Source: Heterotrichella gracilis (taxonomy: Eukaryota; Sar; Xanthophyceae; Tribonematales; Xanthonemataceae). From it: a stretch of 64,000 nucleotides of DNA. The translations under genes were made by a program, and so were the position numbers. Below the pieces are notes generated by a model. That model was given only the letters and a program-made list of their open reading frames with translations, searched no databases and was not told the DNA's origin. The stretch is taken from positions 62,001 through 126,000 of the forward strand of contig JAULBX010005442.1 in NCBI GenBank assembly GCA_032358255.1, in the 5' to 3' direction. This document shows, in pieces, positions 13,890 through 61,871 of this stretch (positions are counted from its first letter, which is position 1; every line of letters begins with the position of its first letter).

Positions 13890-16800
13890 ATGGCTGGGGC
13901 ACCATCAGGAAGGATGATGGCCACCTTCATGGCCCAGCTACTATCTTTATGGCTCCTCGTAGTCTTCACTGCCGCCGCAAACTCACTGCCCGACCTTGCA
14001 ACCTGCGAGTCCCTCCTCGAAACCTACCTCCAGGAATTCCCATTGTCAACTAGTGGCACCGCAGCCAACCACACCTTGCTCTACTTCCTCCACATCCCCA
14101 GAACGGCAGGCCGCACCTTCTTCTCATGCTATCTCAAACCCTCGTTCCCGCCCTCGAGGAGGTGTGCAAAGTCGTACGACACCCTACGGCTCAACATCAG
14201 CATGCCAAACTGCGGCCTGCTGTCCAGCCACGACGACTACAGCGCAGTCAAATACTTCCCACCAAACGCAGCCGTCTTGACCCAGATACGTGACCCAGTT
14301 GATAGGCTCCTCAGCGCGTATGAGTTCGCGACGGAAGTGGGTGCCAGAGGGCTCAAAAGGAGCCGAAACTACCGTCCCGACCCAAACATGATCAGCACGC
14401 AAAACGTATGGCCCTGGTCGATCCTGGTGCCCTGGTTTGAGGAGCGACTGAGGCAAAAGGTGTGGGGTCGACATGCATTTGAGCCAAGCTGCCTGCCACA
14501 CACCAGTCGACTCGTTGCGTGCGTGGTCTGCATATGCATGCATATAGCAGCGGTCGCCGGTTCGATGCTTGTGCCAGCGCCAGCATTATGCATGCATGTG
14601 AGAATGCATATGATATGCAAACGCAGCGCTTAAAGCACCACTTCCACCATCTGTAGGTTGATGCTGCGCAAGACGAGGCTCCAGCAGGTAGGCACTTGTA
14701 CCTGCCCACCCGAACGCCATACCTGACAGCCCTGTAATGCTTGCATGTTAGGCTGGGTAATCAGTACTCAGAGCAACCGCTACGCCATCATTATGCCACC
14801 GCACAAAACATCTTGCCCTTCTCTTGCCACCGCCAATGCCATCGCCAATGGCACTACCCAAGCACCGCCAATGCCATCGCCAATGCACCACCCTGCATTT
14901 GAATCCCACGCTTCCCCCCCTTCCGCACTCCTCCCACACCCGCATCCCACCCCTCAGACAACGCGTGGCGGCGGTACCACACGGACGAAGGCGAGGCGTA
15001 CTTCTTCAACCCCGCATTCAACCTCACCCAGTGGGAGCTGCCAGCCAACGCCACCGAGCTCCTCGCGCTCGATCCCTATGACAACCCCCTTGTGCCCCCG
15101 CTGGAAGATTTTGTGAGGTCTGAGGTGGCGGCGGACCTGCTGCATAACGGGGCGGCGCTGCAGGTGGGTGGCGGGTGGGCGGGGTAAGAACAAGATTTTA
15201 AAATATGATTACAGATAAGAATGAAATTGAGATTGAGAATAAGAAGGAAATAAAGATTAAGGTTAAAGATAAAGAGTGAGTGCCCGTCGCGGCTCAGAAG
15301 AAAAAGCATAGGCACCAGGTGGGCGGGGTACAGATGAGGGAGTGGGGGGGGAGTGGGGGGGATATGGAAGAACATGAGCTGAGGGAATTGGTCATGCTTG
15401 GCCGGTCTTATAACCCCTTGTGCCCCCGCTGGAGGGGTGAATTTAAAAAGGAGATGGCAGCAGACATGCTGCAAAATGGGCCGGCGCTGCAGATGGGGCG
15501 TGGGGGATGAGGTGGGGTGGGCTGGGCCCCAACGCTAGAGTTACGTAACTGCATGCTGCCCTTGTCCCCGCATGTTGCCTAATACTGCTATTCTCATGCG
15601 CCTAACGTAAGCCAGGTGAGTCTGCCTACACCCTTCACCCTACAGATGGCCAACCGCATCCACGCCCCCCACCCCCCGCCCCCCACAGGTCCTGGGCCTG
15701 ACCAACTACTCGCACTGGGCCCCCGCCGCCACCATGCGCCAGTGCATCCGCGCACACCCGCAGGTGGAGGACAGGCTGCTTGGCCTGGCCCTGAACCGCA
15801 CAGACAAGTTTGTGCATGTGGGCGTGTTCGACCAACTGGAGGAGTCCATCCGCGCCTCGGCGGTAAGGGTTTCAGGGTTTTGGGGGGTAGGGCTTTGGGC
15901 GTTGGCACGTGGACCTGTTCAATTCTGATGAGGAGTCGATCCGCACCTCCGCGGTAAGGGTTTTCCATGCTCACTGGATTAGTAGAGTATCTGAGTGTTG
16001 AAGCATGTGGCGTGTTGCATACATGCGGAGCGGCGGGCGGGTTTCAATGGATACCATCACCCCACCCACCACCCTACCGCAGGCTAGTAAACCCTAAACC
16101 CTAACCGTACACCCTCCCGTAGGCGACGCTGGGCGTGGACTTGGAGGGGCACAGCTGGAAGAGCCCCAAGACCACAGACATATCATACGAGGTGGGTAGG
16201 GTGAAGGCACGGGATTAAAGTGCAAAAGGATGGTTTATTTTTATATTTCATGATATTTCATACGAGGTGCGGGGCGGGTGGACGGGCGGCGCATGGCTCA
16301 TGGTGGCATGGCACGTGCAAGGGGCCATCAGCTGCGCACGCACATGCGCACGCCCCGCGCAGGTTGCTGTGTGCGTGCATTGATCAGCGGCTTTGGTATG
16401 CCCTCGTCAGTGACTGCGACACGGTGTGGGGTTTAGGCTGTGGTGGTGGCTGTGCAGGGCGAGGGGAGCCGGTCTGTACCCCGGGCGGGGCCCCTGGATG
16501 CGCGTGAGCGGCGGCGACTGGACGACGCCCTCCATGGGGTGAGGCGCAAGCTCAAGGACGTGCGATCGTGAGTAGTGCGCTCTGTCAGCAAAACCCTAGA
16601 CCCATGTGCCTTGCCTTGGAACAGGAACCCATGTTACATCCTAAACTATAAAATGTGAGCCTTGCCTTGGCGCAGGAATCCATCTTCAACTTTAAACCAT
16701 GTGCCTTGCCTTGGTACAGTAACCCGTCTTAAACCCTAAACCTTAAACCCTAAACCACGTGCCTTGCCTTGTTGCAGGAAGCTGTCTGTTGCGCGCAGGC

Positions 16801-18682
16801 AGGAGTTCCAAGGGGGGAAGCAGGGAGGGGGGGACTCTGAGGAGCAGCTGACCGCTAGGCAGGATGCACTGGAGGTAAGTGGGCTTAAATTCTGAGTCTT
16901 AACCCCTGAATCGCATGCTGGAAGTGCGTGGGGCCTATAACCTAAACCCCACCTGTCTCTGTGCACAAAAGTGACCCTGTGGGGTGCCTTTTGCGGCATC
17001 TTGCTGTGGCGCAGCCTAGCTTGCCATGCCCGGAAACCCTAAAATCTCCTGCCTGCCTAGCACCCACAAGACACCCCCACACCGCCACCACACCTGACCA
17101 CATGCCAAAGAGCGCCACCCCCCACACACCCACTTGACCGTTGCCACCATTCCACCCCCACCACCACCTGCCAAGTGGGGGCACACCCACCACCACCACC
17201 ACCACCACCACCACCACATCACCTGTCAGGCAGGCACCCTCCCCACCTGCCCAACTGACACCACCACCAACACCAACACCCCTTTTTTGCAGCGTGAGGA
17301 GCAATCCCTCATGGCCAAGCTGGGGGTGGTGCCCATGTCCCAAGCCAAGGGCGCGGCGCGGCAGCTGGCGCCAGATGAAACCTTCCTCACGCGGAAAAAG
17401 GTGGGTCCCAAACCCTAAGCCTTAAACCCTAACCAGTGTCCCAGGCCAAGGGCACAGTGCGGGAGCTGGCACCAGATTTAGCTTCCCGCACGCACAGTTG
17501 GTGCCCCGACGGCTGCGGCTTGCATGGGGTGCTGGCATTGAGGAATACCCAATCTAACAGTATTAAAAGTCTTTTGGTATATGGATGCGTACATGCCAAG
17601 ATTTCGACATGCATATGTTGCGTCCCAGCACTACATATGCTAATTGTTGTGTGTCTCGCTGGACAGGTGTGGCAGAACTACCGCGAGTGCGTCGCCCGCA
17701 GCCGCGCAAAGAACCGCAGCCAGCGTGCCAACTCGCTGCGCAACCTGGTCATGCCAGACACGCGAGAGGTGCTGTTTGGCCGGGAGGCGCGCGCAAGCAT
17801 CCCGGCGCACGTGATCGACAAGATCAGGTGGGGATATCATAAATGCTTATTCAGTTGGATTTTATATAGTATTACTATACTGAACTGCATGGGCACCAAG
17901 CTGTGTTGCCTGGTGCAGTTCAGGCTTGTTTCAAACCCTAGACCCTGACCCAAGACCCTGCATGTGCAGGTCGCTGAACCGCATGGACACCGAGCTGTAT
18001 CGCCTGGCCCAGTCCAAGCTTGCTGTAACCATAAACCCTAATTCAAAACCCTGCATGTGCAGATCGCTGAACCACATGGACACCGAGCTGTGTTGCCTGG
18101 CGCAGTCCACGCTTGCCCTAAACCCTAAACCCTAATTCAAAACCCTGCATGTGCAGGTCGCTGAACCGCATGGACACCGAGCTGTATCGCCTGGCGCAGT
18201 CCAAGCTAGGCTCGGCACTGGCGGATCACACAGCAGGGGGCACGCTGCAACCGCTGCCCGATCTCACCACGCAGCGCAAGAAGCCTGACCCACCCACCAG
18301 GAGGGCCGGGAACCCAGGTAGGGTTTAGGCTGTGCTGGGTTTAGGGTTTCAGGGTCGCACACGGGCATTCCTATATGGTCTCACCACGCAGGGTAAGGAA
18401 GCCTGACCCACCCACCAGAAGGGCCTGCGTCATTGGATTGAACGTACGATATGTCTGGGTGCACTTTGGCTTGCTGAGTGAGGGTGTGGAGTGGTGGTTC
18501 CCAGGGCCCCTGTGTCGCATGGGGGCCTGGCCCCTGTGTGGGTGGGGTGGTGTGGGGGGGCTGCTATATGTGGCTCAAGCCAAATGGTGTGGAAGAGTGC
18601 ACTGTGCTGAGGGTTTGGCTTGTGCTGAGGGTTTAGTGTTGTTTTTGCAGGCAAGGCCGGCAAGCGCAAGGATGAGTTGTGA
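13890..18682 (+). CDS. Sulfotransferase with WW domain and C-terminal KDEL
   Basis: Predicted 572-residue protein in eleven frame-consistent exons (13890-14459, 14657-14687, 14958-15163, 15689-15862, 16123-16191, 16458-16567, 16778-16874, 17293-17400, 17667-17827, 18157-18317, 18651-18682). An N-terminal hydrophobic segment, FMAQLLSLWLLVVFTAAA, can act as signal or anchor. LLYFLHIPRTAGRTFFSCYL fits the 5'-phosphosulfate-binding loop of Golgi sulfotransferases. IRDPVDRLLSAYEFA fits the 3'-phosphate-binding segment. A WW domain follows (WRRYHTDEGEAYFFN...WELP). The C-terminal third is basic and helical, rich in Arg/Lys/Glu, and the last residues are KRKDEL, a canonical ER-retrieval signal. Inferred role: PAPS-dependent sulfation in the early secretory pathway. 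The exact start is uncertain; in-frame ATGs exist at 13878, 13890 and 13914. Confidence 0.85.
15411..15500 (+). repeat. Echo of sulfotransferase exon 3 tail
   Basis: Decayed copy, inside intron 3, of the end of exon 3 at 15081-15170. It keeps CCCCTTGTGCCCCCGCTGG and the end GGCGCTGCAG, but the donor is now GATGGG. It is not open in the parental frame throughout. Confidence 0.8.
15908..15964 (+). repeat. Echo of sulfotransferase exon 4 tail with donor site
   Basis: Copy of the last 45 bases of exon 4 plus donor. It keeps GAGGAGTC.ATCCGC.CCTC and the donor GCGGTAAGGGTTT, so a second potential 5' splice site lies about 95 bases downstream of the used one. Confidence 0.8.
16251..16275 (+). repeat. 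Echo of sulfotransferase exon 5 tail
   Basis: Short copy of the exon 5 end: ATTTCATACGAGGTGCGGGG against ATATCATACGAGGTGGGT. It retains the GAG/GT donor context. Confidence 0.55.
16601..16730 (+). repeat. Three echoes of sulfotransferase exon 7 acceptor region
   Basis: Three imperfect copies about 45-50 bases apart of the unit CATGTGCCTTGCCTTG followed by a CAG-like acceptor. The used copy sits at about 16758-16790. Each is followed by telomere-like CCTAAA bases. Confidence 0.75.
17188..17219 (+). repeat. (CAC)n microsatellite in intron
   Basis: About ten CAC units in intron 7 of the sulfotransferase gene. Confidence 0.9.
17436..17493 (+). repeat. Echo of sulfotransferase exon 8 tail
   Basis: Copy of GTCCCAAGCCAAGGGC...GGCAGCTGGCGCCAGAT from exon 8, here GTCCCAGGCCAAGGGC...GGGAGCTGGCACCAGAT. 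It lies 35 bases inside intron 8, next to CCCTAA repeats. Confidence 0.8.
17881..18118 (+). repeat. Three upstream echoes of sulfotransferase exon 10 head
   Basis: Three copies precede the used exon 10 start at 18157. Copies two and three keep the acceptor TGCATGTGCAG and the coding block TCGCTGAACC.CATGGACACC almost unchanged. The first is more diverged (CATGGGCACCAAGCTGTG). They are separated by CCCTAAACCCTAA-like spacers. Confidence 0.88.
18375..18428 (+). repeat. Echo of sulfotransferase exon 10 tail
   Basis: Copy of CTCACCACGCAG...AAGCCTGACCCACCCACCAG from the exon 10 end, lying 60 bases inside intron 10. Confidence 0.85.
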
Positions 18683-19895: not shown

Positions 19896-22800
19896 ATGGC
19901 AGCTTTCTTCGATGGCGGACAGGTAGGGCCCAGCCGTACTTGCCTACACTGCGTTCAAGCAGGTCGTGGAACGGCAGTGGGCTGCACACGCACGGCTATG
20001 CTGTGGTTTCACCTCGACCTGGAAGAAAAGTCCTAGCTTCCTCAGCCACAGTCATCCCCGAAGCTATGTGGTTAGCACTACCACTGCTGTCTGCTGTTGG
20101 GTGCTAGCGAGTCGTTCGGTTCTGTAATCATGTCCTAACTCAAGGTGGGGGGCAACCTCCTGAGTCGGAACCTTCGCCATCGTCACGCCGTGGTACCATC
20201 GGGTCACACTATTTATGTCAACAACCGCATGGCAATGACATGGTCGTTTTAAACACCAGGTGGGCGGGGCGTTTGGAACGGCCAATGCCCGCCAGGAGGA
20301 CCCGGTTGTGGCTGGCGTGGACCAAGACGTGGGCGTCCTGCACCTCTACGTCGTGGTAAGTCCCTCGCTTGGAACACCACCTGCATCTCCCCATTGCCAG
20401 GTTAGGTACGGTGTACCGTGACAAAGCTGGTGGCGTTACGATGGGGTGCTCCCTCCACACAGGGCCTGGACGAGCTGTCGTACAGCGTGGCGCCTGACGT
20501 CATGATGAGCTGGCTGCACCGCTTCCAGGTGGAGCTGGACTTTGTGTGCACCCTGCTCAGCCTGTACAAGGCCTACGCGTCAGGTAGGGTAGGCCACACA
20601 CCCCACCCATATGCACACCCACTTACACCATACCTTGCACACCCACACACACACCATAGGCACAGGCACCATACCATTGCTAGGCATGCCACACACCCTA
20701 AGCGCACGCCGCACAGTCACCACACCACCCATACACACAACCGCACACATTCCACCAGCCGGCGCACACAGCGCTTACACACATCCACACCACATACAAC
20801 CCTTGACCACCTTCCACACAGCAGGGAGCATAATATGACCAACTCCACCTGTCCCACCAATTTGTGCCAGTCCCAGCCTGGAGACGGTAGTACCACCCGG
20901 CGCACTGGCACACAATGCCACCTTTTTGCCACCTACCAAAAATACTGGATACATCTCACGCCATTCCACATAACGATGGTTGACCAGTGTCCCATGCTGC
21001 GTGCAGGTCCCGAGTATGTGGTTGTGTCCGGCATGATGGGCGACAGCCACTGCAGGCCGCACTTTGCGCTGGTGTTTGCCTACTTTGCACAGCGGGTGCT
21101 GCAGCAGGTGAGACGCGGCTACTGGTTAGGATTTGGGCTTCATGGTTTAGGGTTTTGATGACAGCCACTGCTGGCCGCACTTTGCGCTGGTGTTTGCCTA
21201 CTTTGCACAGAGGGTGCTGCAGCTGGTGAGGACAGGGTGCTGATTAGGGTTTGGGCTTCAGGTTCAGGGTTTGGACGCAGCCCTGCAGGTCACACTTTGC
21301 GCTGGTGTTTGCGCACCACTTGATGCTTTGCACAGAGGGTGCTGCAGCTGGTGAGACGCGGCTGCTGTTTAGGGTCCAGGGTTTGCGGTGAAGGGTTATC
21401 GTTTGTGCTGCTGCTGGTCATGGGAACGTGAGCGGATGGCATGCTGGATAGGGTTTGGGTTAGTGCATGCCTGCCGCACCTATGTGGGCCCATGGAGAGA
21501 CAGAGGACATGCCTGCTGGTTAGGGTTTAGGGTTTTGGAAGAAGGACTGGGAGCCACGCATTGCGCTGGTGTCTGCCTATCACCGGATGCTTTGCACAGT
21601 GGGTGTTGCAACTGGTAGAGAAGGTGAAGGGTTTAGGGTGTGTGCTGCTGTTGCTCATGGGGGTGTGAGCCGATGGCAGGCTGTGTAGGGTTAGGATTAG
21701 GGTTGTATGGACAGCTGCATGCCTGGCGCATCCATGTGAACCCCAGTGAGGGAGGAAGAGGGGCTAAGGTGAGGTGAAAACTGCACTTGCTGGTCACAAA
21801 GGGGGCCATTTTTGAGGCTTTTCACCATGGAACCCTACCAAAGGGTTTGCCCCCCACGCCACAAATGCTCCCCGGCCCGCCACCGCCCACTCACCCCTTC
21901 CCCTCCCCCGCAGCTGGGCCCCCTCCAGGGCCACACCCTGCCCCTGCGCATGGGCGTGCACGCAGGGGAGGTCGCCTCGGGCGTGATCGGCACCTCCTCC
22001 CTTGCATACACAATCTTCGGCAGGGCGCCGGTGCTGGCCGAGCGGCTGCAGCGGGAATGCGCCCCTGCCCACCTGCTCGCCACGCGCCACCTGGCGGCGC
22101 TGGCGGAGGGGGTTGGGGTTGAGGGGGGCCTGGAGGTGGGGTGGCGGGGGTGTGCGGCGGTGGAGTCTGCCGGGGAGTGGGTGGCTGTGTGTGAGCTGAG
22201 CTTGGAGGAGCTGGCGGCATCGGACAGCGTGGCAGGTGGGTTTGGCGGTGGGGGTTGGGGGTGGGTTTGGCGTTTGGGGGATGGGAGGGAAGGTGGGTGC
22301 TTCCATGTTGGTCGCGTGCATTGCGTGTTGGTGCACGGCGCCTGGTTGGGGGCACGCATTGCGGCGGTGTTCAGCAGTGGGAGTGGCCAAGGGTGAAAGC
22401 ATGGTTGCAATGCCGTGATGAGTGCTGGCGGGGCATGGTGGTGCATGTGGCGGCCATCGTGGAAGTGCAGCAGTTGGATGCAGTGGCAGGCAACGTAGAT
22501 ATCATGGAAAGTCATGATGCGGACTTGATCACATTTACAATCGCCCACCTAGGGCAGCGACACTTACAATCACAATTAGGACAGCGAATTCGTTCAAGCC
22601 AAGCGCATGCACATGCCATGACATTGTTGTGTAGCTGGGCCAGGATCGCTAGAAGTTTTGGGTTAGGGGATGCTGACAGTGCTCGTGCACCGTTGTGTGG
22701 GGTCGCTTTATGCAAAGACCCTCCCTAGCAGCACAATATGCACCCGCACCCCTAACCCCCCCCGCACCCCCTGCAGAGGCTGTGCAGCGCCTAATCCGCA

Positions 22801-24858
22801 CCCAGCTGGAAACCATCCCTGTGCCTACCTTCCTGCACTCGGCCACCTTTGCAATGCAGCTCATGGGCCTACCGCCGGCGCCCTCCCCACAGGTGAGTGG
22901 CGTACCCTAGGATTACAGTAGGGTATTGATGGTCTTGAGTAGGGTTTGCCATGCACCACATGTGAGCGGCGTACCCTGGGGTATCCAACATTGTGTGGTG
23001 GAGGGCATGGGTAGGGTTTGCGTGGTCAAGGGCAGGGTCTTGAATACCCCACATTCACACCCACTTGCCCTCCATCCACAATGCGCAGGAGTACTACCAA
23101 CAGCAGCGCCAGCGATCCAACGCCGCGCTCCTGGCACAGCTCAAAATTTGAATCCGCTCTTCGCGCGTTTCCTGGGTAGCGCATTACATACTTCAGCAGT
23201 ACACCTCGTTACCATGGAGCACTTTAAAAAACCGGCCGGTTTCATCGACACTAATCCCTTTTTTCCTGCCGCGTCCCACAGGAGTACTACCAGCAGCAGC
23301 GGCAGCGATCCAATGCCGCGTTCCTGGCGCAGCAGCAGAGCCTGCGGCAGCGGCCCCGCCCCCCGCAGCGGCGCCGCCTACAGCTCCCTGTCCCCCAGGA
23401 CGAGCCCCCTGGCGTGTTTCCCACCTGGACGCTTGACTTCCAGTCCAAGAGCATGGAGCAGGACTACGTGGTGTGGGTGGCAAAGCAGCAGTATGCGGTG
23501 GTGAGTGGGCTCCCCTTGAGCGGTTTGCATCCCAACTTGTTCCCATGTGCATCTCCACATGCCCTCAATTTGCATCCCCGAGGGCGGCCAAGCAGCAATA
23601 TGCGGTGGTACGTGGGGGGGGGCATGCGGTGGTCATGGGTGTGGTATGGCGCGTGGGGGTGACAAGGGTTGGGCATGGAGCAGTGGTATCCAGCGGTGGT
23701 TATTTAGATAGCACCTCCTTGCCCGAAGTGCAAAATTTTAATGGTTCCTGTTCCATCCCACGTGCGTTGAAAATGACTTCAGCCATCTGGGCTCTGCTGG
23801 CGGCTGGCGCCTGGACCCTTAATCCTACATGTGCCTCGCAGGACATTGCCTTCTTCTCAATCACTCACCTCATACTGCTGGCGGAGCTGGGGGTGTGCGC
23901 AAGGTGAGAAAAACCCTAAACCCTAAACCCTGACGCGCATACACACACGCAGTGCTGGCGGAGCTGGGGGTGTGTGCATGGTGAGGGACGCATGCATGCA
24001 TACTCATGCAAACATACACGCGCATATTTGGGTATCAAAGCCATGCATGCATGCATACTTACATACGTACATATACATGGCTTTGCACCACGGGGGTGAT
24101 GATTCATGGCATGGTGTGGGTACTACTATCAACAACAAACCACGCTTCTGGTCGAGCAGACATGTTTTTTGTCTGATACTGTAGCCTGAATGGCCACGTG
24201 CTAAATCTTGGTATTGTCATGGATGAGTCACCCAACCTGCTGACGCATGTGGTGAGTCCCACACGCACTTCATCCACCACCACCGCCCACACCGGGTACC
24301 CACTGCCTCTCCGCAGGTGGCACCACCACCTCACCCACCGGCACCCTCTCCCTCTCACTCCCCTCACTCCATTCACCCCGCAGGTCGCACCACCACCGCT
24401 GCACCTCGCTGCTCCTCCAGGCCCTGCTGCTGGCCACCTGCCCCGTGCTGCTCTTTGCCCTCTCCCACGCAACCTACTCGGTGCAGCGAGACAGCGCCAT
24501 CGCCTTCACCATGCTGCTCTCCATACTCGCCAACATCGCTGCAGCCCGCGCCACGCTCCCGCCCTCCGACGTCAACTGCTTCATCCTGCTCATGGCGCAG
24601 ACGGGGCTCATGTACCTCTGCCCGCTGCTGGCGCACGTGCGCTTCTACTACCACATCTTTTTGTACGGCCTGCTGGGCTGCGTGAGCGTGACGGCCATGC
24701 TGCACAGCTTTGCGCAGATCGCCACCGCGGTGGTCACGGAGGCGTCCTTCCTGGCGGCGGCCTACCTGATCGTGAGCGTGATCGCGCCCACGCTGCTGGT
24801 GTACGGGCGGGAGCGGGGCGCGCGGGTGCAGTTCATCGACGCCACCGCGCCGCGGTGA
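19896..24858 (+). CDS. Degenerate class III cyclase-homology protein with C-terminal membrane helices
   Basis: Predicted 522 residues in ten exons (19896-19922, 20260-20355, 20463-20583, 21007-21107, 21914-22235, 22777-22892, 23282-23500, 23842-23903, 24185-24251, 24421-24858). The N-terminal half aligns with adenylate/guanylate cyclase catalytic domains: VLHLYVVGLDELS, EYVVVSGMMGDS, LPLRMGVHAGEVASGVIG and FGRAPVLAERLQRE. Both metal-binding Asp positions (D in FxDIxGFT and in GDxY) and the transition-state Asn appear replaced, so catalysis is doubtful. The C-terminal half has about five hydrophobic helices (for example FILLMAQTGLMYLCPLL and FLAAAYLIVSVIAPTLL). Exon 10 must start at 24421 to keep the hydrophobic frame; earlier AGs give unlikely frames. 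The first tiny exon is the least certain. Confidence 0.62.
21159..21625 (+). repeat. Three echoes of cyclase-homology exon 4 tail
   Basis: Copies at about 21160-21237, 21270-21365 and 21540-21625 of the exon 4 end at 21046-21115. All keep TTTGCGCTGGTGT.TGC or close variants and TTTGCACAG.GGGTG, and each is followed by a GT and TTAGGGTTT-like telomeric bases. Confidence 0.9.
23081..23152 (+). repeat. Echo of cyclase-homology exon 7 head with acceptor
   Basis: Copy of the start of exon 7 (23282 on). Acceptor GCGCAG plus GAGTACTACCAACAGCAGCG are retained. Spliced in place of exon 7 it would read about 20 codons and stop. Confidence 0.85.
23584..23616 (+). repeat. Echo of cyclase-homology exon 7 tail
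   Basis: GCCAAGCAGCAATATGCGGT plus GGTACG donor, copying the exon 7 end GCAAAGCAGCAGTATGCGGT. Confidence 0.75.
23951..23986 (+). repeat. Echo of cyclase-homology exon 8 tail
   Basis: GTGCTGGCGGAGCTGGGGGT with a GGTGAG donor, copied about 75 bases downstream of the used exon 8 end and preceded by three CCCTAAA units. Confidence 0.8.
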
Positions 24859-47600: not shown

Positions 47601-49222
47601 CTTTTTGTGCAGGTTCGCGCGGAGGGTGGCGAGGTGGGTGGACCTGCTTGTTGCGCGCTCATTGTGGCCCTGTGCCAGGCCAGCCGCACCAGCGATGCGG
47701 AGGGGGTGTACAGGGAAATGCTGGCGGGGGCGTACACGGTGCTGGAAGGTGGGTGGGGCGGGGTTGAGGGTTTGGAATATGTGGTTTAGGGTTCCTGCGC
47801 ACATGGTGCGGGGAGGTGGGTGGGGCGGTGTTTGGGGTTTGGGGTTCCAGCGTACACTGCGCAGGAAGGTGGATGGTGGGTGTGGAATGCGGAGGGGGGC
47901 GGGCGAGTGCGGCATGCTTTGTGCCATGTCAGCACATGGGTGCATCTTTGTGCCATGTCAGCACATGGGTGCATGTTTTGTGCCATGTCAGCACATGGGT
48001 GCATGCTTTGTGCCATGTCAGCACATGGGTGCATCTTTGTGCCATGTCAGCACATGGGTACGTTAGACATGCTATGCACGCACACACCTTTTGCACACAC
48101 ATGCATCTCTCAGTCACCAAGGCACACACGCACGTACACACACAGAGTGGTCCCTTTCACCCCGTCCAACCCCCAACCCACACGTGCAGGTGGCCGCCGG
48201 CGGCGCCGACGCATCGCCCAGCGCGCACTGCTGCCTGATGGTGCAGCATGCTCAGCCCTGGTGCTGGCACACTGCCAGGCTGGCAACCTCCCCAGGTAGG
48301 GTTTATGCACCAGGATTATGGTCCTAGCTAGGGTTTTGGTGGTTGATTTGACCTGGCTTTTTAAATGTAAATATGATTTTGTGGATTATCGCTTCATGAC
48401 GTCCTCAGAGGGCCTGGCACTATTACGCCCAGCCGTGCCGCAAACCCGCCAATAGGAATGTCATCGATTATTATCAATTGTGAGTATAATTTGTTCTTGC
48501 CCTCCCCAGGGCCTGGCACTACTACGCCCACCTTCGCCGCGACCCCGCCGCCCTGCCCCCCCTCACGCTGAGCTGGCGCCGCATGTGGGAGGTGCTCCTG
48601 GAGAGCTGCTGCAGGGGCCACCACATGCGCCGTGCATGGATGGTGTTTGGGGACTGGAAGGAGGCGTGCGTGCCCCTGCTGGCAGACCCGCAGGCGGGCA
48701 GGTGGGGGTTGGGGTGTGTGTGTGTGTGGTGGTGGTGGTGGTGGCATGTGTGGCGCCATGAACGTCTCCCTTAATGGGCACGTGGGGGTGGTGTAGTGTG
48801 GTGATGGTGTCATGCGGGCTGGTGGGAGGTGGGGCGGGTGGTTAGGTTACAACCCTGCAGGTACCCCCAAAAGCTGTCCACCGTGACCCTAAACCCTTAA
48901 ACCCTACCCTCATGCAGAGACCCCAAGGTGTCTGCCGTGACCCTACACCCTATAGGGTTTTGCTAAATCCCTAATTTCACACACCAGCTGTCCACCGCGA
49001 CCCTAAACCCTAAAACCCTAACCCCCCCGCAGGTACCCCAAGCTGTCCACTGTGACCCTAGCGTTTCTTGAGGCCTGCTGCCGGGGCGACCCCGACCAGG
49101 AGTGGCGCATGTACGACGTGTGCGCGGTTATGCGCCAGCAGAGCGAGCGCAAGCGGGAGGCGGCGCTGGTGCGGCCCCAGAAGGCCAGCCACCACGTCAT
49201 GGAGCACCGCGGCGAGTGGTGA
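41681..49222 (+). CDS. Pentatricopeptide repeat (PPR) protein, organellar
   Basis: Predicted 964-residue PPR protein in fourteen exons (41681-42319, 42727-42912, 43237-43464, 43851-44109, 44533-44659, 44957-45168, 45501-45693, 46163-46292, 46672-46892, 47217-47292, 47613-47748, 48190-48295, 48510-48701, 49033-49222), all frame-consistent. The N-terminus has no acids and is Pro/Thr/His-rich, fitting an organelle transit peptide. PPR motifs run from about residue 180: PDSYCYCALISASGRVRDAA, NVWVCNNAIDAFTRCGSHEA, PDTITINSLIKVAVARQDPE, PDTTTMNTMISGCAQGGDVT, PSQTTFGALLHVCAKGGQVG, PTSVTYGCLMTACHVACDVE and more. Such proteins bind organellar RNA one base per repeat. The last exon has no PPR pattern and is rich in Arg/Glu. 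Introns carry many copies of neighbouring exon edges. Confidence 0.9.
42369..42423 (+). repeat. Echo of PPR exon 1 tail
   Basis: CAGCCCTACACCGTCCTGGGAGG...GCAGGTGGTGCAGG copies CAGCCCTACAGCAACCTGGAGG...GCAGGTAGTGGAGG at the exon 1 end. Confidence 0.7.
43668..43702 (+). repeat. Echo of PPR exon 4 head with acceptor
   Basis: GTGCAG then GCCTTCAATGGAATGTCC and TATTTGG copy the used acceptor and exon start at 43845. Confidence 0.85.
44186..44246 (+). repeat. Echo of PPR exon 4 tail with donor
   Basis: ATTTGGGAGGTGGTGCTGGAGGATGGGCTGCAGCTGTCGGGTATGT-type copy of the exon 4 end at 44068-44115; 40 or more bases nearly unchanged, donor included. Confidence 0.9.
44471..44518 (+). repeat. Element shared by PPR introns 4 and 8, copy 1
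   Basis: GACTGCGAATCTGGCTGTAC and TGCTGGACATGGTAGTAA resemble 46329-46372 (GACTGCTAATCTGACTGTAT, TGCTGGAATGCATGTAA). Confidence 0.5.
45709..45741 (+). repeat. (GGT)n microsatellite
   Basis: About ten GGT units directly after the exon 7 donor of the PPR gene. Confidence 0.9.
45755..45950 (+). repeat. Two echoes of PPR exon 7 tail
   Basis: Copies at about 45755-45830 and 45884-45945 of CTCATGGATGTGTACTCAAAGGAGGGGAGTGAGCGGTCGCTGG (45638-45680). Both keep GAGCGGTCGCTGGCCATGGT and the following GTGGG donor, with GGT repeats between. Confidence 0.92.
46329..46372 (+). repeat. Element shared by PPR introns 4 and 8, copy 2
   Basis: Partner of the copy at 44471-44518. Its origin is unknown, as no neighbouring exon matches it. 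Confidence 0.5.
46928..47172 (+). repeat. Decayed echoes of PPR exon 9 tail
   Basis: Three degraded copies (about 46930-46978, 46997-47050, 47143-47172) of CGCATGCTGTCGCTGCTGCGCACCATGGGGCTG. The third keeps CTGCGCATGCTGTTGCTGCTGGGG. Confidence 0.65.
47527..47551 (+). repeat. (CCACAG)n short tandem repeat
   Basis: Four CCACAG units in intron 10 of the PPR gene. Confidence 0.85.
47914..48060 (+). repeat. Minisatellite, five units of about 31 bases
   Basis: Unit TTTGTGCCATGTCAGCACATGGGTGCAT(C/G) repeated five times in intron 11 of the PPR gene. The unit holds the partial palindrome TGCCATGTCAGCACATGG. Confidence 0.92.
48406..48448 (+). repeat. Echo of PPR exon 13 head
   Basis: CAGAGGGCCTGGCACTATTACGCCCA copies CCAGGGCCTGGCACTACTACGCCCA at 48506. 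The acceptor AG is retained. Confidence 0.85.
48857..49016 (+). repeat. Three decoy copies of PPR exon 14 acceptor and head
   Basis: Each copy has a (T)GCAG or CAG-like site followed by a variant of TACCCCAAGCTGTCCACTGTGACCCTA. They are spaced by CCCTAAACCC units, and the used copy begins at 49033. Confidence 0.85.
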
Positions 49223-49344: not shown

Positions 49345-49437
49345 GGGAGGTCAAGCGGCAGGGGGGGCTGGCCCGCCTGCAGAAGGCCAGCCACCACGCC
49401 ATGGAGCACCGGCTGGTGACGTGTGTAGGTTAGGGTC
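49345..49437 (+). repeat. Echo of PPR last-exon tail in 3' flank
   Basis: CAGAAGGCCAGCCACCACGCCATGGAGCACCG copies CAGAAGGCCAGCCACCACGTCATGGAGCACCG near the stop codon. The copy therefore lies downstream of the gene rather than in an intron. Confidence 0.88.
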
Positions 49438-50482: not shown

Positions 50483-50517
50483 TGGCGCCACACCTGAAGT
50501 ACGGGTGTGTGGCGCCA
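50483..50517. repeat. GGCGCC hairpin
   Basis: TGGCGCCACACC and GGTGTGTGGCGCCA flank an 8-9-base loop. TGGCGCC recurs at about 50382, 50522 and 50628. Confidence 0.65.
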
Positions 50518-53732: not shown

Positions 53733-56700
53733 ATGGCAGAGCTTGAACAAGAGATTGGGCTCGCCCAGGAGGCCGTCAACAAGCAAGGCGACACCGTACG
53801 ATCCCTGAAAGCTGCGGCAAAAGATGGGAGCGCCACAAAGGTACCCAGTGCTGTTTCGCTTTTGCTGCGGCATCTTGTACGATGTTGCACATGTGCACCG
53901 GTGGGTTGTTGATGGCTGGGTGTTGCAACAGGACCAAGTGACGGAGGCCATAGAACAGCTCAAGCAGCTGAAGATAACGCTTGATGAGAAGCAAAAGGTG
54001 CGTTCATTGGCACAGGTTAACGCATAAGATGGCCGTCACTTAGTAACCGGTCTCACCACAGCGTTCGCACACAAAGCAGCCAGTTACAGCTGTTTCCAAT
54101 GCACGTTGAGACACAGTTAATCACTGCATCTTACGAGCCCTTGGCGCAACCTCCTTTTGACCATGTAAAGTTATTGTCACATCCCATATGCATGCATGCA
54201 GCAGAGGCCCTGCACCCAGCAGCATATGCATGCACTGAGCCCTGCACCACCCCGCAGGCGTACGAGAAGGTGTCTGGCAAGTCCAGCTCACAAAGCAGGG
54301 AGGCCTTCCGAGCGGCAATGGTACGGAAGCACATGCACAGGCTACAGGCGACACCATGAGTCACACCACCGGACACTGGCACTGGCATGGCACTTGTTTC
54401 TACTGCAAACCCGGCCAAATTTACCCTGTTCAACACTACTGCTTGCCAGCTGTGCGATCCACCACTCTAATATACACACACGCGCCGTGCCACCGCAAAT
54501 CGTTCACCCCTTTGCTTGCTCACCACCACCGTCACTAGCAACCACCACCACCATCACCACAAGCACAACCACAACCACCCATGCTGCAGAACAACGTGCT
54601 TGAGCGGCGCATGTTCTACATGCCCTCCTTCAAGATCTATGGCAGCGTGGGCGGGTTCTACGACTATGGCCCCCCTGGGTGCGCAGTCAAGCAGAACATC
54701 ACGCAGTACTGGAGGCAGCACTTTGTGCTGGAGGAGAACATGCTGGAGGTGGGTGGAGGGGTGGGGATGTGTTGGGGAGGGAGGGGGAGAAGGCAGGAGG
54801 GGGGGGACAATGCATGCTGCACAGCGAGGACCGTATGCCTGCATGCAGCGTGGCAGCGCTGCAGCCCCGTTGTGCATGAAGCACTCGAGCACGCGACTCA
54901 AGAGACACCATTATAACGCAACTAGCACACTCCCACATGGCCCTGACGGACGTCACCGCCACACTTCCCCACCCCCCACAACACCCGCCACTTCCCGCAG
55001 GTGGAGTGCCCCGCAGTGACTCCGGAGATCGTGCTCAAGGCCTCTGGCCATGTGGAGCGGTTCACTGACTTCATGGTCACGGACATCAAGACGGGCGACT
55101 GCCACCGGGCAGACCACCTGCTGGAGCACTGCCTGGAGGCGCTGATCGAGGACAGGGCCAGCGGGGCGGCGGCGGTGGCGGTGCGTTTGCAGGGGCTGGT
55201 GGCTGGGTGGTGCATGGTGCAACGGATGTTTGTGTGGGGGGAGCAGATGTGCTGGTGGTGGGGGGTCGTGTGGTGCATGTGGGGGTGGAGATGGGCCGAC
55301 CACCTGCTGGAGCGTTGCCTGGAGGCGCTGATCGAGGGCAGGGCAAGTGGGAAGGCGGTGGTGGCGGTGCACTGGCCGGGGTCAATGGGCTGGTGGCCGG
55401 GTGCATGTGGGTGGTGGGTGCGTTGGGTGGACCACCCATCTCCACCTGCTGGCGCGCTGCCTGGAGGCGCACTTTGAGGACAGAGTTTGGCGGTGGCAGT
55501 GAGTTGTGTTAGGGGATCTATGTAGTGCAAGTGGGGGCAGGTGGGGGGATGCAGTGCATGGATTTGGGGCACTGTCTGCAGGCGCTGATGGGGAGCAGGT
55601 TGAGCATGGGGCAGGGTGGTGCTGGTGGTGCATGGGGCCATGTGGGGCTGGTGGTTGGAGGGCGGTGAAAGCGGCGCCAGGCACGGGCGGGGCGGGGCTC
55701 GCATGTTTATCAGGCATTTGTATTGTTCACTTTTTATTGCTGGGTGAGGCAGTGAGGCACACGCGAGCTCAGGCAGGGTCCTTCTGGCCGCATCATTGCT
55801 GGTTACATAGTCACATGGCAATGATTAATTGATAAAACAAGAAAAACGGGGACGGCATTGTCGCATGTGCCAGTGCATGGCGGGGCCCTCAAACATCCTG
55901 GGGCCTGCCGTCACACCACCACCACGACCCCACATCCACCCCTGGCCTACCGTCATACCACCACCACCACCACCCCACATCCACCCGGCCACCCCGCCAC
56001 CTGCCCCACTCACCCCACCCACCCACACCCCACAGGAGGCGCGCGACCTGCTGGCCCGAGTGGGCGAGCTGACCATGCAAGACCTGGGTGCTGCCCTCAC
56101 CCGCTACGGCATCACTGCCCCCGACACCAAGAATGGGCTGTCCGCTCCCTTCCCCTTCAACCTCATGTTCCGCACCTCCATCGGGCCCAAGGGGGACATG
56201 GTGGGCTACCTGCGGCCGGAGACGGCGCAGGGCATCTTTGTGAACTTCAGGTGGGTGTGTAATGGTGGGTATGGGAGGGCATAATGGTGGTGGTGGGTGG
56301 AGGTGGGTGGAGGGGCAGGGGTTGTGAATGTGGGCGGGTGATGCAGCCCATCACCGTGTCACGGTGGGCATGGCTGCGCTTCCACAACCTGTCCAGAAAG
56401 CTCTTTGTACACTACAAAGGTGGCAAGGTACCCTTTGCCGCCGCCAAGGTCTTCAACTCCGATCCCCACTCTCTGGCCCACGCTACCAACCCCCAGCAAC
56501 CTAATTTTGTCGTCCAAACTCCCAAACCTAACCCCCAGCACCTATTGCACAACAAGCTCTAGTTGCATGACAATCCCCGCACCACCATCCCAGGGACCTG
56601 CTGTACTACAACGGCGGCAGGCTGCCCTTTGCCGCTGCCCAGATCGGCAACTCCTACCGAAACGAGATCTCGCCGCGGGCTGGTCTGCTGCGGGTGCGGG

Positions 56701-59700
56701 AGTTCACGCAGGCCGAGATTGAGCACTTCTGCAACCCAGAGGACAAGGTGGGTGAGGGTGGGGTGGGGAGGAGAGGGGAGGGGAGGGGATGCGAAGTGGG
56801 GAGGCGGAGGCTGAGGGCTTCATGTTGACAGTGGTTGAGCTGTACTAAAATTCCAAGGGCTTGTTGGGTGGGTGTGGGTGCAACCTTCACGGTGGCAGCG
56901 TTGAGCCTGTGATAGTGGGTGGGGTGGGATCACACAGGGAGCGCTGTAGGGTTTCTGGTTTGCACACAGTGACAGGGGTGCACGACATGAGGACCCTCAG
57001 AACCTGCGCAGCATTCGAGCAATCGATGCACCCATACCCTGCCCGCCCACCCCCCACCCGCACCTGCAGAGCCACCCCAAGTTCAAGTCCGTTGCGGGCC
57101 TGACCCCCCTGCTGTACTCGCGTGCCCTGCAAATGGGCGAGGAAAAGAAGGCGCTGCCCATGGGCCTGGGCGAGGCGGTGGAGAGGAAGATCATCGCAAA
57201 CCAAACACTGGCATACTTCATAGGTAGGAGGTGGTAACCACTGTGGGCAGGAAGATCATTGCAATCGGCTCACTGGCATACTTCATAGGTGGGATTGGGT
57301 TACCACTGTGGGGCTAGCTGTTTGCAGGGTTTCATGGGCTTAAAATCATTGTGGGGCTAGCTGTTTGAAGGGTTTAACGGGGTTAAAATCCACCTATGAA
57401 ATATGTTGCCATACGCCACCAAAATGGACGAAGGTACGTACTGTCTTGCTAGGGTACGAAAAGCAAGGCCTGAACCCTGCTAGGGTTTAGTTGTTGTCAT
57501 CGCCTGCAGCACTGTCGACTGTAATTCGAGGCCCTTATGCACACCGTCTGCACTTTCCCGCAACAGAGCATCAACTCATTTCACACTTATGTTCACACAT
57601 TCCCCCAGGCCGCACCCACCTACTTGCCCTGCGCATCGGCATGGACCCCTCCAAAGTTCGCTTCCGCCAGCACCTGCAGCACGAGATGGCGCACTATGCT
57701 GAGGACTGCTGGGACTTTGAGGTGGAGTGCAGCTACGGGTGGGTGGAGTGCGCGGGGCTGGCAGACAGGAGCGCATACGACCTCAAGGTGGGTGGTGTGG
57801 ACGTGGTGGTGTGGTGTTGACAATGGTGCTGGCACTACCCCGAAAGCTACAGTGATCTTTGACATTGGGACCCACCCTGAATCACCCTACTTCCTTGCCA
57901 TGACCCTTCATCCAAGATTGCACCTTGCCATCACTACTCTGTCCCCAGACGATCATTTATTGAGTAATAGCATTTTTCATGTTGATCTCATTTTCTCAAG
58001 GGCGGACCTGACCCCTGCCACCCACCCTCCATAGGCCCACACCGCCATGTCCAAGATCGAGCTGAACGCATATGAGCGCTTCTCTGAGCCCCGCGTGATT
58101 GACCACCTGGCAATCACCGTCAACAAGAAGGAGATGGGCAAGGCGTTCAAGAAGGACGCAAAGGCGGTGCAGGAGGCGCTGGAGGGTGGGTGGCGGGGGT
58201 GGGGTGGGATGGGTGGGGGATGTGCGCCGCGGGTGGTTTGGGGTGAGGTTATGAGTGGAACGGGGGGACGAGGTGGAATGCACTGCTAGAAGGGGAGAGG
58301 GGGCGAGGGGTGTCGGAGGAGGTGGGTGCGAGGACGGTGTACCTAGCGGCAGGCAGGGCACATGCATCAGTAGATCAGTGGTACACATGCAGGCGTCATC
58401 ATCACATGCGCCACACACCGCGCGGCGCATGGGCGCTGAATCCCCCTGACGCCCTCCCCTGTATGGTTGTGCGGAAGGGTTGTGTTGTACTGACTGCTGA
58501 GCTGGCAGCTGGTGTCATGAGCACATGCGACACGTGCCCTATCGTCACATGGTACCATGCTGCACACGCCTTGATGATATAAATGTGCTGATCCCCGATT
58601 GGTCGCTTGCTGTAGGGATGTGCGAGGGTGATGCGCTGGCGTTGGCCGCTGAGCTGGCGGCGGGCAGGACTGGCCAGGTGGCGGTGGATGGGACCAAGTT
58701 TGACATCATCCCCGGGATGGTGGAGATTGCCAAGGAGAAGAAGAAGGTGTCCGGCAGGTGAGGGAAGGGTTTTGGGTGGGGTTTCGGGGAAGGGTTTTGG
58801 ACAGTGTTTGATTCATTAGGATATTTTCACCGGAACAGAATTGCCCTTGCACCTACCCGCCATGCAGCGGCCCTGCATCCCCCCACCCACACACCCTTCC
58901 CGTCACACACCTTGTACCACACATCCAACACCTGAAACCTCTATGCGTGCAGGGCCTTCATCCCATCTGTGATTGAGCCCTCCTTTGGCATTGGCCGCAT
59001 GATGTATTGCATGTTTGAGCACTGCTTCTACAGCAGAGAGGGCGACGACAAGCGGACGGTGTTCAGGTTCACGCCCCTGGTGGCGCCAATCAAGGTGGGT
59101 GGTGGTGGTGGTGGTGAAGTGCGGGGACAAGGCCGCAGAAGTATAGTAAGCAGAGAATAGTAAATTGATAGTTTACTTCTATGACGCTGGTGGCGCCAGT
59201 CAGGGTGGTGGTGGTGGCGGTGGAGTGGAGTGGAGTGGGAGAATGCCGCAGTGTTTAGTTCCATGCCGCTGGTGGGGCCAATAGCTAGGTGGTGGTGGTG
59301 GTGGTGGTGGTGGTGGGTGGGGCAAGCGGGCGGTGTTCAGTTTCACGCCGCTGGTGGCGCCAAACAAGGTGTGGGGTGGGGGTGGCTGGCGCTGGTAGTG
59401 GGGTGGGGAAACTGTGCGGTTTTTGGGCTAAACCCTGAACCTTGAACCCTAACCATCACCTGCAGGTGACGGTCTTCCCCCTAATGGCTAAGGGCGAGCT
59501 CAACGCCCAGTCGGAGAAGATCAGCGCCACGCTCACCGCCGCTGGGCTGAGCAACATCATCGACACAACGGGGACGGCCATCGGGCGGCGATACGCGCGC
59601 ACCGACGAGATTGGCGTGCCCTTTGCATGCACGGTGGACTACCAGACGCTGGAGGATGGCACCGTCACGCTGAGGGAGAGGGACACCATGGAGCAGGTGG

Positions 59701-60012: not shown

Positions 60013-61871
60013 AACGGGGAGGGAACCAGAGGGGGGGGGGGGCTACAGGGTTACAGCCATGCAGTGGGGTAAAGAGGGGAGGTACTGCCCGCTGCAGGGG
60101 GCCAAGGGGAGGGGCTGGACATGGCTTGATAGGGGGGGATTGTAGGTAGGGAGGTTGGTATGATAGGGTGCCGTCGATGGCTTTGCGCCATTCCTGCATG
60201 TGAACCACTCGAGCATACTTGGTGCCTGGTGCTGTGGCCCAGCGATCCATGGTATCAAATACCCGCCATGTGAGGGATAGTGGTACCTTTTTGCACAATG
60301 GGAGGCATCCTGACTTTACATTCATGAATCATGAAGCTACCTGTTGGTCACAAGGAGTTTGAACCCCGGACCACAATCATTGCGTTACTGGTCACCATTG
60401 AATGCTGGCATTTGGTTGAGCATGCATGATTGCTATTGAATATCGATGAATTTCGTTTATACAGACCAAAGGCCCAAAACGTTATTTTGGTTATTGCACC
60501 TTCAATCCTGTCTACCGTAACATGAATTATCATGGCGGAAATGTAAACATTGTGGGCATGTTTTAGTAGCATTGCCCCTGCAAACATTGTGGGCATGTTT
60601 TCATTAAGTAGATGTATCGCGCTGTGACCGGCGGACGGTTCCAGCCTGGAACCACTTGGTCCGTGACACGAAGTGGAGACGTTTGTGCACTGGTTTGTGT
60701 GTGAGGTGCATAGTAATGTTATGTACAATATATTATAATAATCATTGCAGACGGGAGCTAGAGCGCACATGTCACATGGCACACACACTTGCATCATATA
60801 TTATATTATTAATCTATATTCACGCACTGCATCAGATTATAATATATTCATGCCCTGCAGTGAATCAAACCTAGTCTAGGCAATGGCAACGGGTACGTAC
60901 CCCAATCAATGCAGCAGCTGTCAGTGCATTTGGCAAATTGAATCGCATATGTCCTTATAAGTGTTTTACAAGCACTGCGCGGCGCTGCATGCCTCGTATT
61001 CACTTACACTCAGCTATTTTACTAGTAAATTTTCGCTTTACAACAGGGCCTGCATGTTTACAATGCAATTGCAAATACAGTAATATTTACTGTCATTAAT
61101 TTATAATAGTACAAGAAAACATCCCCACCCAAGGAGGCAAAAGAAGGCTGAGCAAAAAGAGTGTGCCTGCGCAGTGCAGACTGGATTCTAGGACCTGAAT
61201 AGTAAACGCAATTCAAGAACAATTTGGGGCCCATGGAAAATAACTGCAGCACTGCATTGCGACTTCTTAGGAATGAAAAACGCAAGCTTGGGCCTTCAAG
61301 ATATCCAACTTCTAGGTAGGCACCATAACTTACAAGCGCTACATGACCCGCCAGCCCATTCATGGTAACCATTGCCAGCTATACGATGTACATGTCATAG
61401 CACAAATTGTTTGTCAAGGAAAGATACAGCACTGAGAAGATGTGGCGTTGGATATTGGAAGGGTGTGATACTAAAAAAAAAAAATGAAACACAAATGCTC
61501 TGAACACCAGTAATGGTCCACCAATGGTTCCCTGCTGGTCAGCTGCCAGGGCTGCCCGGGGTGGTTGGGTTAGGGCTCCTACACCATGTGCAACAGGTGG
61601 TGCTGCGTCGGCTTGACAGTAGTTTTGCCATCCAACCGTTGCCCACCAACCAGCCTCAAGCCTTCATGCAGGCAGGTGGAAGTCACGCAGAGGAGAGCAG
61701 CCAGGGGTGGCATATGAGGACACATGAACCACCATCACTCAGGCGTGGGGGTGCACCCTTGCACCGTAAAAACCAATCAAATGATGGGAGTGGTGCTCGC
61801 CCGCCTCCTGAAAGCTACGCCCAAGTTGCATGAGCACTCCCGTCTGGGACACACTGTGGAACAGGGTCATC
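60013..61871. other. Intergenic region between convergent genes
   Basis: Contains the GARS 3' flank with one echo of its last exon (60076-60118), an AT-rich part with TATATTATA motifs around 60725-60850 and an A12 tract near 61470. No supported gene. Confidence 0.4.
60076..60118 (+). repeat. Echo of GARS last-exon tail in 3' flank
   Basis: GAGGTACTGCCCGCTGCAGG.GGCCAAGGGG copies GAAGTACCCGCTGCAGGAGGCCAAGGGG at 59959, again downstream of the stop codon. Confidence 0.75.

What the first reader, a model, noticed from the sequence alone, without database searches (positions are those of the whole stretch)
15411..60118. Exon-boundary echoes: introns filled with decayed copies of the neighbouring exon edge
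In seven consecutive genes (sulfotransferase, cyclase-homology, MAT1-like, TGS1, the unidentified gene, PPR and GARS) I find over 35 intronic segments of 25-95 bases that copy the last or first part of the adjacent exon including its donor or acceptor. Tail copies lie downstream of the exon, head copies upstream, always in the same orientation. Copies range from near-perfect to heavily decayed, and several introns have three. Two also lie just past stop codons. The first five genes (to 13.5 kb) have none. This implies repeated local tandem duplication spanning splice junctions, lengthening introns and creating decoy splice sites. It recalls the AGGT tandem-duplication model of intron gain, but here as an ongoing, multi-round process.
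Basis: partly seen in the sequence, partly recalled or inferred. Interest (0 to 1): 0.87.

Follow-up and report, generated by a model that had tools for sequence, protein, structure and literature searches.

The report
Exon-edge copies in algal introns
In this stretch of what looks like a green-alga genome, introns have repeatedly grown by copying the edge of the neighbouring exon into themselves, often with telomere-type repeats between the copies, which offers a concrete, testable picture of how introns lengthen and collect decoy splice sites.

Summary
I built 13 gene models (82 introns, all GT-AG, no internal stops). Exon edges match their own adjacent intron far more than controls: 26 of 164 edges, against 0 of 164 reverse-complement, 0 of 82 wrong-side and 2 of 4920 other-intron comparisons. 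A gapped search finds 42 echoes on 30 edges in 28 introns of 8 genes. Divergence runs from 2 to 27%, copies look non-coding, arrays show several rounds.

The polarity needs no special mechanism: direct duplication across a splice site, with the exon-proximal site kept, gives it. In 16 of 38 testable echoes the duplicated intron part is also detectable. AGGT intron gain does not fit.

Such duplications are nearly absent from 20.7 kb of intergenic DNA and moderately favour edges over intron interiors. And telomere motifs (TTTAGGG) lie mostly in introns, enriched in echo introns and at echo junctions.

Best reading: recurrent break-repair-type tandem duplication in transcribed DNA, filtered by selection. 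Telomere involvement is suggestive, unproven. One window, no RNA, no relatives.

The parts
15414..15504 (+). tail echo of exon 3 of the sulfotransferase-like gene (source 15086-15175), donor GT lost
   Evidence: 74% identity
15902..15963 (+). tail echo of exon 4 (source 15810-15872), GTAAGG kept; telomere-like spacer 15866-15880
16602..16777 (+). tandem copies around the acceptor of exon 7 (offsets 44-95; mostly intron sequence, only about 10 exon nt), telomere-like 16730-16756
   Evidence: not among the 42
17433..17506 (+). tail echo of exon 8 (source 17333-17409); spacer 17410-17432 is telomere-like
17880..18113 (+). three head echoes of exon 10 (source 18145-18207), period 94, telomere-like DNA between copies
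18379..18425 (+). tail echo of exon 10 (source 18262-18307); telomere-like 18319-18349 in spacer
21160..21621 (+). three tail echoes of cyclase-gene exon 4 (source 21037-21119) in an 806-nt intron, telomere-like spacers
23086..23140 (+). head echo of cyclase exon 7 (source 23279-23333), 91% identity, no duplicated intron part detectable
23582..23616 (+). tail echo of cyclase exon 7
23953..23985 (+). tail echo of cyclase exon 8 (source 23876-23908), 94%; telomere-like spacer 23911-23931
24311..24330 (+). short head echo of the last cyclase exon with acceptor
27939..27986 (-). head echo of MAT1 exon 4 (source 27849-27893); telomere-like 27911-27935 at the junction
30366..30428 (+). tail echo of TGS1 exon 3 (source 30256-30318), unit 110 nt including intron sequence
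32962..33003 (+). head echo of TGS1 exon 8
38244..38276 (-). head echo of exon 8 of the second unidentified gene
38359..38422 (-). tail echo of exon 7 of the second unidentified gene (source 38557-38619)
38916..38965 (-). head echo of exon 7 of the second unidentified gene (source 38747-38796)
42371..42435 (+). tail echo of PPR exon 1; telomere-like 42327-42361 in spacer
43668..43698 (+). head echo of PPR exon 4
44174..44250 (+). tail echo of PPR exon 4 (source 44045-44121)
45753..45949 (+). two tail echoes of PPR exon 7 (source 45617-45705)
46997..47166 (+). two tail echoes of PPR exon 9 (46997-47062, 47145-47166)
47797..47876 (+). two tail echoes of PPR exon 11 (source 47730-47760); telomere-like 47783-47793
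48397..48450 (+). head echo of PPR exon 13
48853..49024 (+). head echoes of PPR exon 14 (48853-48891, 48906-48945; a further partial copy from 48986) separated by telomere-like DNA
49352..49411 (+). copy of the end of the PPR coding sequence, past its stop codon (ends 49222)
55293..55631 (+). three tail echoes of GARS exon 5 (source 55107-55187) in an 855-nt intron
56411..56460 (+). head echo of GARS exon 7 (source 56605-56654)
57243..57294 (+). tail echo of GARS exon 8 (source 57178-57229), period 65
58459..58512 (+). weak head echo of GARS exon 11
   Evidence: score 42, 72% identity
59177..59379 (+). three tail echoes of GARS exon 12 (source 59036-59106); the farthest copy is the most similar
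60088..60109 (+). short copy of the end of the GARS coding sequence, past its stop codon (ends 60012)

Best explanation
Introns of this alga keep receiving short direct tandem duplications that straddle an exon-intron junction (nearest offset 65-197 nt at 29 of 30 edges, 328 at one). Inside transcribed genes a staggered or stalled DNA end near the splice site is filled in and rejoined, giving edge-intron-edge-intron. The exon-proximal copy of the splice site goes on being used, because using the inner copy would usually shift the frame or add a stop. The inner copy is then ordinary intron, decays neutrally, lengthens the intron and for a while remains a decoy splice site. Repetition builds arrays. 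Telomere-type TTTAGGG stretches near the junctions are either the fragile sites where this starts or filler added by telomere-type repair. Shown: the copies, their polarity, decay, arrays, near-absence from intergenic DNA, and telomere-motif association. Inferred: break repair, the retained-site logic, and any role of telomere machinery.
For: Matches only on the right side and in direct orientation (26 of 164; controls 0 of 164, 0 of 82, 2 of 4920). Annotation-blind scan: 55 repeat clusters, 32 involving an exon edge, 22 intron-only, 1 intergenic, 0 exon-exon; control offsets of 5.0-5.5 and 9.0-9.5 kb give 0 at the same score. 16 of 38 testable echoes, on 12 of 28 tested edges, continue into duplicated intron sequence at p<0.05 against other genes' introns, about 2 being expected by chance; they include the young ones at exon 10 of the KDEL gene, cyclase exon 4 and TGS1 exon 3. 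Copies diverge like non-coding DNA: mismatch at codon positions 1/2/3 is 13.5/15.2/17.4%. Divergence per edge runs from 0.02 to 0.27. Telomere motif: AACCCTAA 29 in introns, 2 in intergenic DNA, 0 in exons; a telomere 7-mer in 21 of 28 echo introns and 15 of 54 others (length >=200: 21 of 28 and 11 of 35, p=0.0009); coverage 13.5% of spacers and 6.5% elsewhere in the same introns; within 40 nt of the junction at 12 of 30 edges, null mean 5.3. Break-derived tandem duplication needing CST-Pol alpha-primase is reported for mouse and human cells (PMC8355091, abstract and passages).
Against: 22 of 38 testable echoes show no duplicated intron part, some of them young (cyclase exon 8 tail, 7% exon divergence; exon 8 head of the second unidentified gene and one PPR exon 14 head copy, 4%), so a plain contiguous tandem unit is not shown for them; filler insertion or template switching would be needed. 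Some positives (PPR exon 7, GARS exon 12) rest partly on GGT-rich sequence. 7 of 28 echo introns carry no telomere 7-mer; at the level of 6-mer coverage the contrast is weaker (4.9% of intron, 2.0% of intergenic, 0.8% of exon bases). The motif is also raised on the splice side of copies (12 of 42 windows, p=0.06; coverage p=0.02), as expected if it is simply part of the duplicated intron. Within genes the preference for edges is moderate and depends on merging: p=0.0015 to 0.04 (27 of 33, 27 of 36 or 33 of 42 loci against 0.556-0.592 expected). Intron pseudo-edges score often (118 of 1118, against 25 of 164 real edges), largely because the arrays lie there. G-richness of donors does not differ between echo and other introns (p=0.2). 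The telomere association and the 60-nt cut were found on the same data that test them.
Confidence: 0.58

Rival explanations
1. Plain background tandem duplication, uniform along the genome; selection removes it from coding sequence, and the conserved exon side makes edge copies recognisable for longer, so the edge bias is only a detection effect.
For: Polarity and orientation follow automatically. Simulated detection is somewhat better for edge units (0.85 against 0.64-0.67 at maximum divergence 0.25). With the loosest merging the within-gene edge excess is only p=0.04.
Against: With that bias included, uniform placement gives 35-40% edge, 24-28% intron and 30-35% intergenic. Observed loci with unit >=60 are 27 edge, 0 independent intron-only, 0 intergenic; with all units 27 edge, 6 intron (9 when one search is added) and 1-2 intergenic: 27 of 35 against 0.40 p=9e-6, intergenic 2 of 35 against 0.30 p=0.0005. 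Merging of clusters into loci was by hand; a 30-nt minisatellite at 47912 was counted by its unit. Tandem Repeats Finder lists a further intergenic array at 33998-34063, unit 29.
Confidence: 0.19
2. Copying is coupled to splicing or transcription itself (R-loops, nascent RNA used as repair template, breaks at splice-site chromatin), so exon edges are the true targets.
For: Restriction to introns and edges; in 22 of 38 echoes no similarity beyond the splice-site consensus is detectable, some of them young; intergenic DNA has only one or two short repeats in the scans.
Against: Two copies lie beyond stop codons, where no splice site exists; 16 of 38 echoes include ordinary intron sequence. No direct test was possible.
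Confidence: 0.13
3. Intron gain by the AGGT tandem-duplication model: the introns themselves are duplicated exon segments.
For: Same ingredients: direct duplication with AG and GT.
Against: Copy positions do not abut the opposite splice site; units contain pre-existing intron sequence in 16 of 38.
Confidence: 0.03
4. Echoes are kept as functional alternative exon edges or regulated poison sites.
For: 25 of 38 scored echo splice sites lie in the range of real ones.
Against: 22 of the 25 shift the frame or add a stop; only 3 are in frame and open; mismatches show no strong coding pattern. A poison-site role is not excluded.
Confidence: 0.07

Closest known systems
Boundary-crossing tandem duplication with intron gain in the potato RdRp gene (Ma, Lan and Niu 2016, PMC4974935; abstract and results section read)
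   Same: Tandem duplication crosses an intron-exon boundary and duplicates acceptor, polypyrimidine tract and exon start; the same gene also has an 83-bp tandem duplication inside its first intron.
   Different: There the boundary-crossing event made a new intron and added exon sequence. Here many events, at donors and acceptors, lengthen existing introns and leave the predicted mRNA unchanged.
Short tandem duplication from fill-in of breaks with 3' overhangs by CST-Pol alpha-primase and end joining (Schimmel et al. 2021, PMC8355091; abstract and passages seen)
   Same: Direct tandem units of tens of bases; uses the complex that also fills in telomere overhangs.
   Different: Shown in mouse and human cells at Cas9-induced breaks; nothing on introns as a class, splice edges or telomere-like spacers in the passages seen.
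Interstitial telomeric sequences inserted at break repair in mammals (Nergadze et al. 2007, PMC2246262; outline and passages seen)
   Same: Telomere repeats at repaired breaks, in a minority of cases with duplication of the flank (6 of 130 rodent and 4 of 25 primate loci in its table).
   Different: No link to introns or exon edges in the passages seen; here the motifs are short, degenerate and lie inside duplicated units as well.
[quoted passage not shown] 2011, as cited in PMC4974935)
   Same: Local direct duplication involving splice-site sequence.
   Different: Creates an intron from exon sequence; here parent introns pre-exist.

Membership tests
Short direct tandem duplication | Copies direct and local | tested here: met
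   controls (0 of 164 reverse complement, 0 of 82 wrong side)
Short direct tandem duplication | Contiguous unit: spacer repeats after the copy | tested here: inconclusive
   16 of 38 at p<0.05 (about 2 expected by chance); older ones may have decayed, but several young ones fail
Break repair by fill-in and end joining | Dependence on repair enzymes, readable breakpoints | not testable with these tools
   breakpoint microhomology was not analysed; no mutants
Interstitial telomeric sequence insertion | Telomere-type repeats above chance at the sites | tested here: met
   found and tested on the same data
Interstitial telomeric sequence insertion | Repeats absent from the empty orthologous site | not testable with these tools
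   no relatives in two searches, no genome held
AGGT intron gain | Intron made of duplicated exon, copies abutting the opposite splice site | tested here: not met
   positions
Introner or transposon insertion | Related copies in unrelated genes | tested here: not met
   exon-edge queries against other genes' introns: 2 of 4920 reach score 30; no pairs at score 18 at the two distant offset ranges sampled. Applies to the echoes, not to the telomere motifs
Mutually exclusive or tandem exon duplication | Copies keep frame and coding constraint | tested here: not met

The most novel reading that the evidence does not exclude
Telomere-type repair (telomerase addition plus CST fill-in) acts at breaks next to splice sites inside transcribed genes, so that telomere repeats and exon-edge duplications are laid down together. 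Introns would grow outward from their own splice junctions by a telomere-linked mutational process.
Probability: 0.2. Interest if true: 0.86.

Novelty: new variant of a known kind. Interest (0 to 1): 0.66.

Why it matters
Craig et al. 2021 (PMC8226300, passages seen) report conspicuously long introns in core-Reinhardtinia algae, say that the advantage of such lengths is unknown and that whatever drives them is probably ancient. Whether this window belongs to that group is not known, but here a lengthening process can be read copy by copy, with relative ages, at 30 edges in 64 kb. It would also be a steady source of decoy splice sites and an annotation hazard: my own gene predictor was drawn into echoes at 17970-18135 and 55293-55360. 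If the telomere link holds, it ties intron growth to chromosome-end repair.

Tried and rejected
Unsupervised training of the gene predictor collapsed and one search gave one unsplit model per strand; both were replaced by training on checked exons, gene-by-gene slices and hand-checked edges. An extra cyclase exon (about 24185-24251) was dropped because its length breaks the frame; the 3' part of the ribosomal protein gene was left out. G-rich donors as the cause: no significant difference. Clustered errors at copying: 58 adjacent mismatches against 51.1 +- 6.0 permuted, not significant. Relatives: none found in genome contigs with the TM9SF protein or in viral contigs with GARS; species not identified. 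Literature: in the nine searches I saw listings only, capped in some (15 of 56, 12 of 444), and no listed title or abstract start described systematic exon-edge copies in introns or telomere repeats between them; the library lacks most subscription papers. PMC2891723 (intron sliding or tandem duplication in Drosophila) was seen in a listing only; the rice tandem-duplication and paired-nick papers only as references inside PMC8355091.

Limits: the 60-nt unit cut, the merging by hand of the 55 clusters into 27 edge loci and 6 unrelated intron loci (one search adds 3 more), and the telomere question all came after looking at the data. Intergenic here includes untranslated regions. One search looked only 12 nt into the intron, so intron extension is judged alone, which tested 38 of 42 echoes (the other 4 stop short of the splice site); one search scored 38 of 42. 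The simulation used the offsets of the echoes, longer than the units of the unrelated intron repeats. The copies around the exon 7 acceptor at 16602 and a MAT1 exon 3 tail match (score 28) are not among the 42.
Full report
Setting. The window is eukaryotic nuclear DNA of about 57% GC, with gene content and TTTAGGG-type motifs that fit a green alga; that placement is my inference, the species is not established and no genome is held. Pfam supports 10 of the 13 above its curated cut-offs; the KDEL gene has only a sub-threshold WW match and the two unidentified genes have none.

Is it there. Each exon edge (70 nt) was aligned to its own intron. At score 30 or more there are 16 tail and 10 head matches in 82 introns. 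The same queries reversed and complemented give 0 of 164, on the wrong side of the exon 0 of 82, and against other genes' introns 2 of 4920. A scan that ignores annotation finds 55 local repeat clusters: 32 involve an exon edge, 22 lie in introns, 1 is intergenic and none is exon to exon; the same scan at offsets of 5.0-5.5 and 9.0-9.5 kb finds none at that score. A gapped search lists 42 copies on 30 edges in 28 introns of 8 genes. The two copies past stop codons are also present.

What the copies are. In 16 of 38 testable cases, on 12 of 28 edges, the similarity goes on past the splice site into the intron more than in controls at p<0.05, with about 2 expected by chance. There a unit of exon edge plus intron was duplicated as one piece, for instance 110 nt at TGS1 exon 3, 118 nt at cyclase exon 4 and 94 nt at exon 10 of the KDEL gene. 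In the other 22 no such continuation is detectable, including some young copies. Mismatches are nearly even over codon positions (13.5, 15.2 and 17.4%; 35% synonymous against 28% expected), so the copies behave as non-coding DNA with a small contribution from the exon side. Divergence runs from 2 to 27%. In GARS exon 12 the farthest copy is the closest relative of the exon, and at exon 10 of the KDEL gene the second copy is closer than the first, so these arrays did not grow by simple steps.

Polarity explained. Duplicating a unit across a donor gives edge, intron start, edge, intron start. If the first donor stays in use the second edge is downstream in the intron; across an acceptor the mirror image holds. 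Hence tails downstream, heads upstream, same orientation. Using the inner site would shift the frame or add a stop in 22 of 25 cases with a usable score, a sufficient reason for the outer site to be kept. This step is inference.

Is the edge special. I simulated uniform tandem duplications with the observed offsets, with slower change on the exon side and the same scoring threshold. Expected shares are 35-40% edge, 24-28% intron-only and 30-35% intergenic. Observed, after merging by hand, are 27 edge loci (25 splice edges and 2 coding ends), 6 intron loci not traceable to an edge, all with units under 60 nt, and 1 intergenic locus. A gapped pseudo-edge scan at score 36 gives real edges 25 of 164, intergenic positions 5 of 1284 (2 clusters), exon positions 5 of 300 (2 clusters) and intron positions 118 of 1118 (16 clusters, of which I judge 10 edge-derived and 6 not, 3 of these new). 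Against uniform placement p is 9e-6 and for the intergenic deficit 0.0005; inside genes alone p ranges from 0.0015 to 0.04 with the merging and the simulated expectation used. So the contrast with intergenic DNA is strong and that with intron interiors moderate. Tandem Repeats Finder shows one more intergenic array, with unit 29, at 33998-34063.

Telomere-type motifs. AACCCTAA or its complement occurs 29 times in introns, 2 times in intergenic DNA and not in exons; AAACCCTAA occurs 24 times in introns against 0.3 from a second-order Markov model. Counted as islands, 44 of 50 lie in introns, 4 in intergenic DNA and 2 in exons; as 6-mer coverage the contrast is milder, 4.9%, 2.0% and 0.8%. Introns with echoes carry a telomere 7-mer in 21 of 28 cases, others in 15 of 54; for introns of 200 nt or more 21 of 28 and 11 of 35, p=0.0009. 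Within echo introns, coverage is 13.5% between edge and copy and 6.5% elsewhere, higher than in all 2000 shifts. Taking one echo per edge, 12 of 30 junctions have the motif within 40 nt, null mean 5.3, none of 3000 draws as high. The splice side of copies is raised too, less clearly (12 of 42 windows, p=0.06), which fits a motif that is part of the duplicated unit. The G-rich form tends to lie in the 5' half and the C-rich form in the 3' half of introns (20:10 against 7:14, p=0.02, islands not independent), so a role in splicing, for example as CTAAC-like branch sites (recalled, not tested), is a live alternative to repair filler. Not every echo intron has the motif.

Mechanism. The best-supported account is recurrent short tandem duplication of the break-repair kind in transcribed DNA, seeded near splice junctions, filtered by selection. 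Fill-in of staggered breaks by CST and Pol alpha-primase makes such duplications in mammalian cells (PMC8355091), and telomere repeats are inserted at repaired breaks in mammals, sometimes with flank duplication (PMC2246262). Whether either acts here is not shown.

Relation to known systems. A tandem duplication across an intron-exon boundary has been described as intron gain in potato (PMC4974935). What is different here is the number of events, their use of donors, acceptors and coding ends alike, the unchanged predicted mRNA, and the telomere-type spacers. The AGGT model is not met. In the listings of nine searches I saw no description of this pattern. I rate it a new variant of a known kind. 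The main weakness is that everything comes from one 64-kb window with models lacking RNA evidence.

Noticed in passing
window 9925-59436, 50 islands listed: Plant-type telomere motifs (TTTAGGG/CCCTAAA) occur as short islands, 44 of 50 in introns, 4 intergenic, 2 exonic, often near splice sites.
   Followed up: yes
window 17970-18135 and 55001-55360: A simple gene predictor takes echoes for exon sequence, so automatic annotation of such genomes may contain false exon extensions.
   Followed up: partly
introns, whole window: The palindromic 9-mer ATGCATGCA is more frequent in introns (26) than in intergenic DNA (8).
   Followed up: no
47912-48059: A 30-nt minisatellite with five near-identical copies inside PPR intron 11, not traceable to an exon edge.
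   Followed up: no
52001-54000: AT-richer, C-skewed, mostly intergenic stretch (GC 0.496, skew -0.162), by eye rich in TACC/TACT words, between the PPR and GARS genes.
   Followed up: no
13890-18682: The gene called sulfotransferase has no Pfam sulfotransferase match; it ends in KDEL and has a sub-threshold WW match.
   Followed up: partly
28811-25999: The MAT1-like gene model matches positions 13-92 of the 201-position Pfam MAT1 profile; I modelled no RING part upstream.
   Followed up: no
36614-35073: A Methyltransf_22 gene lies amid the echo-rich genes, yet no echo was found in its two introns.
   Followed up: partly
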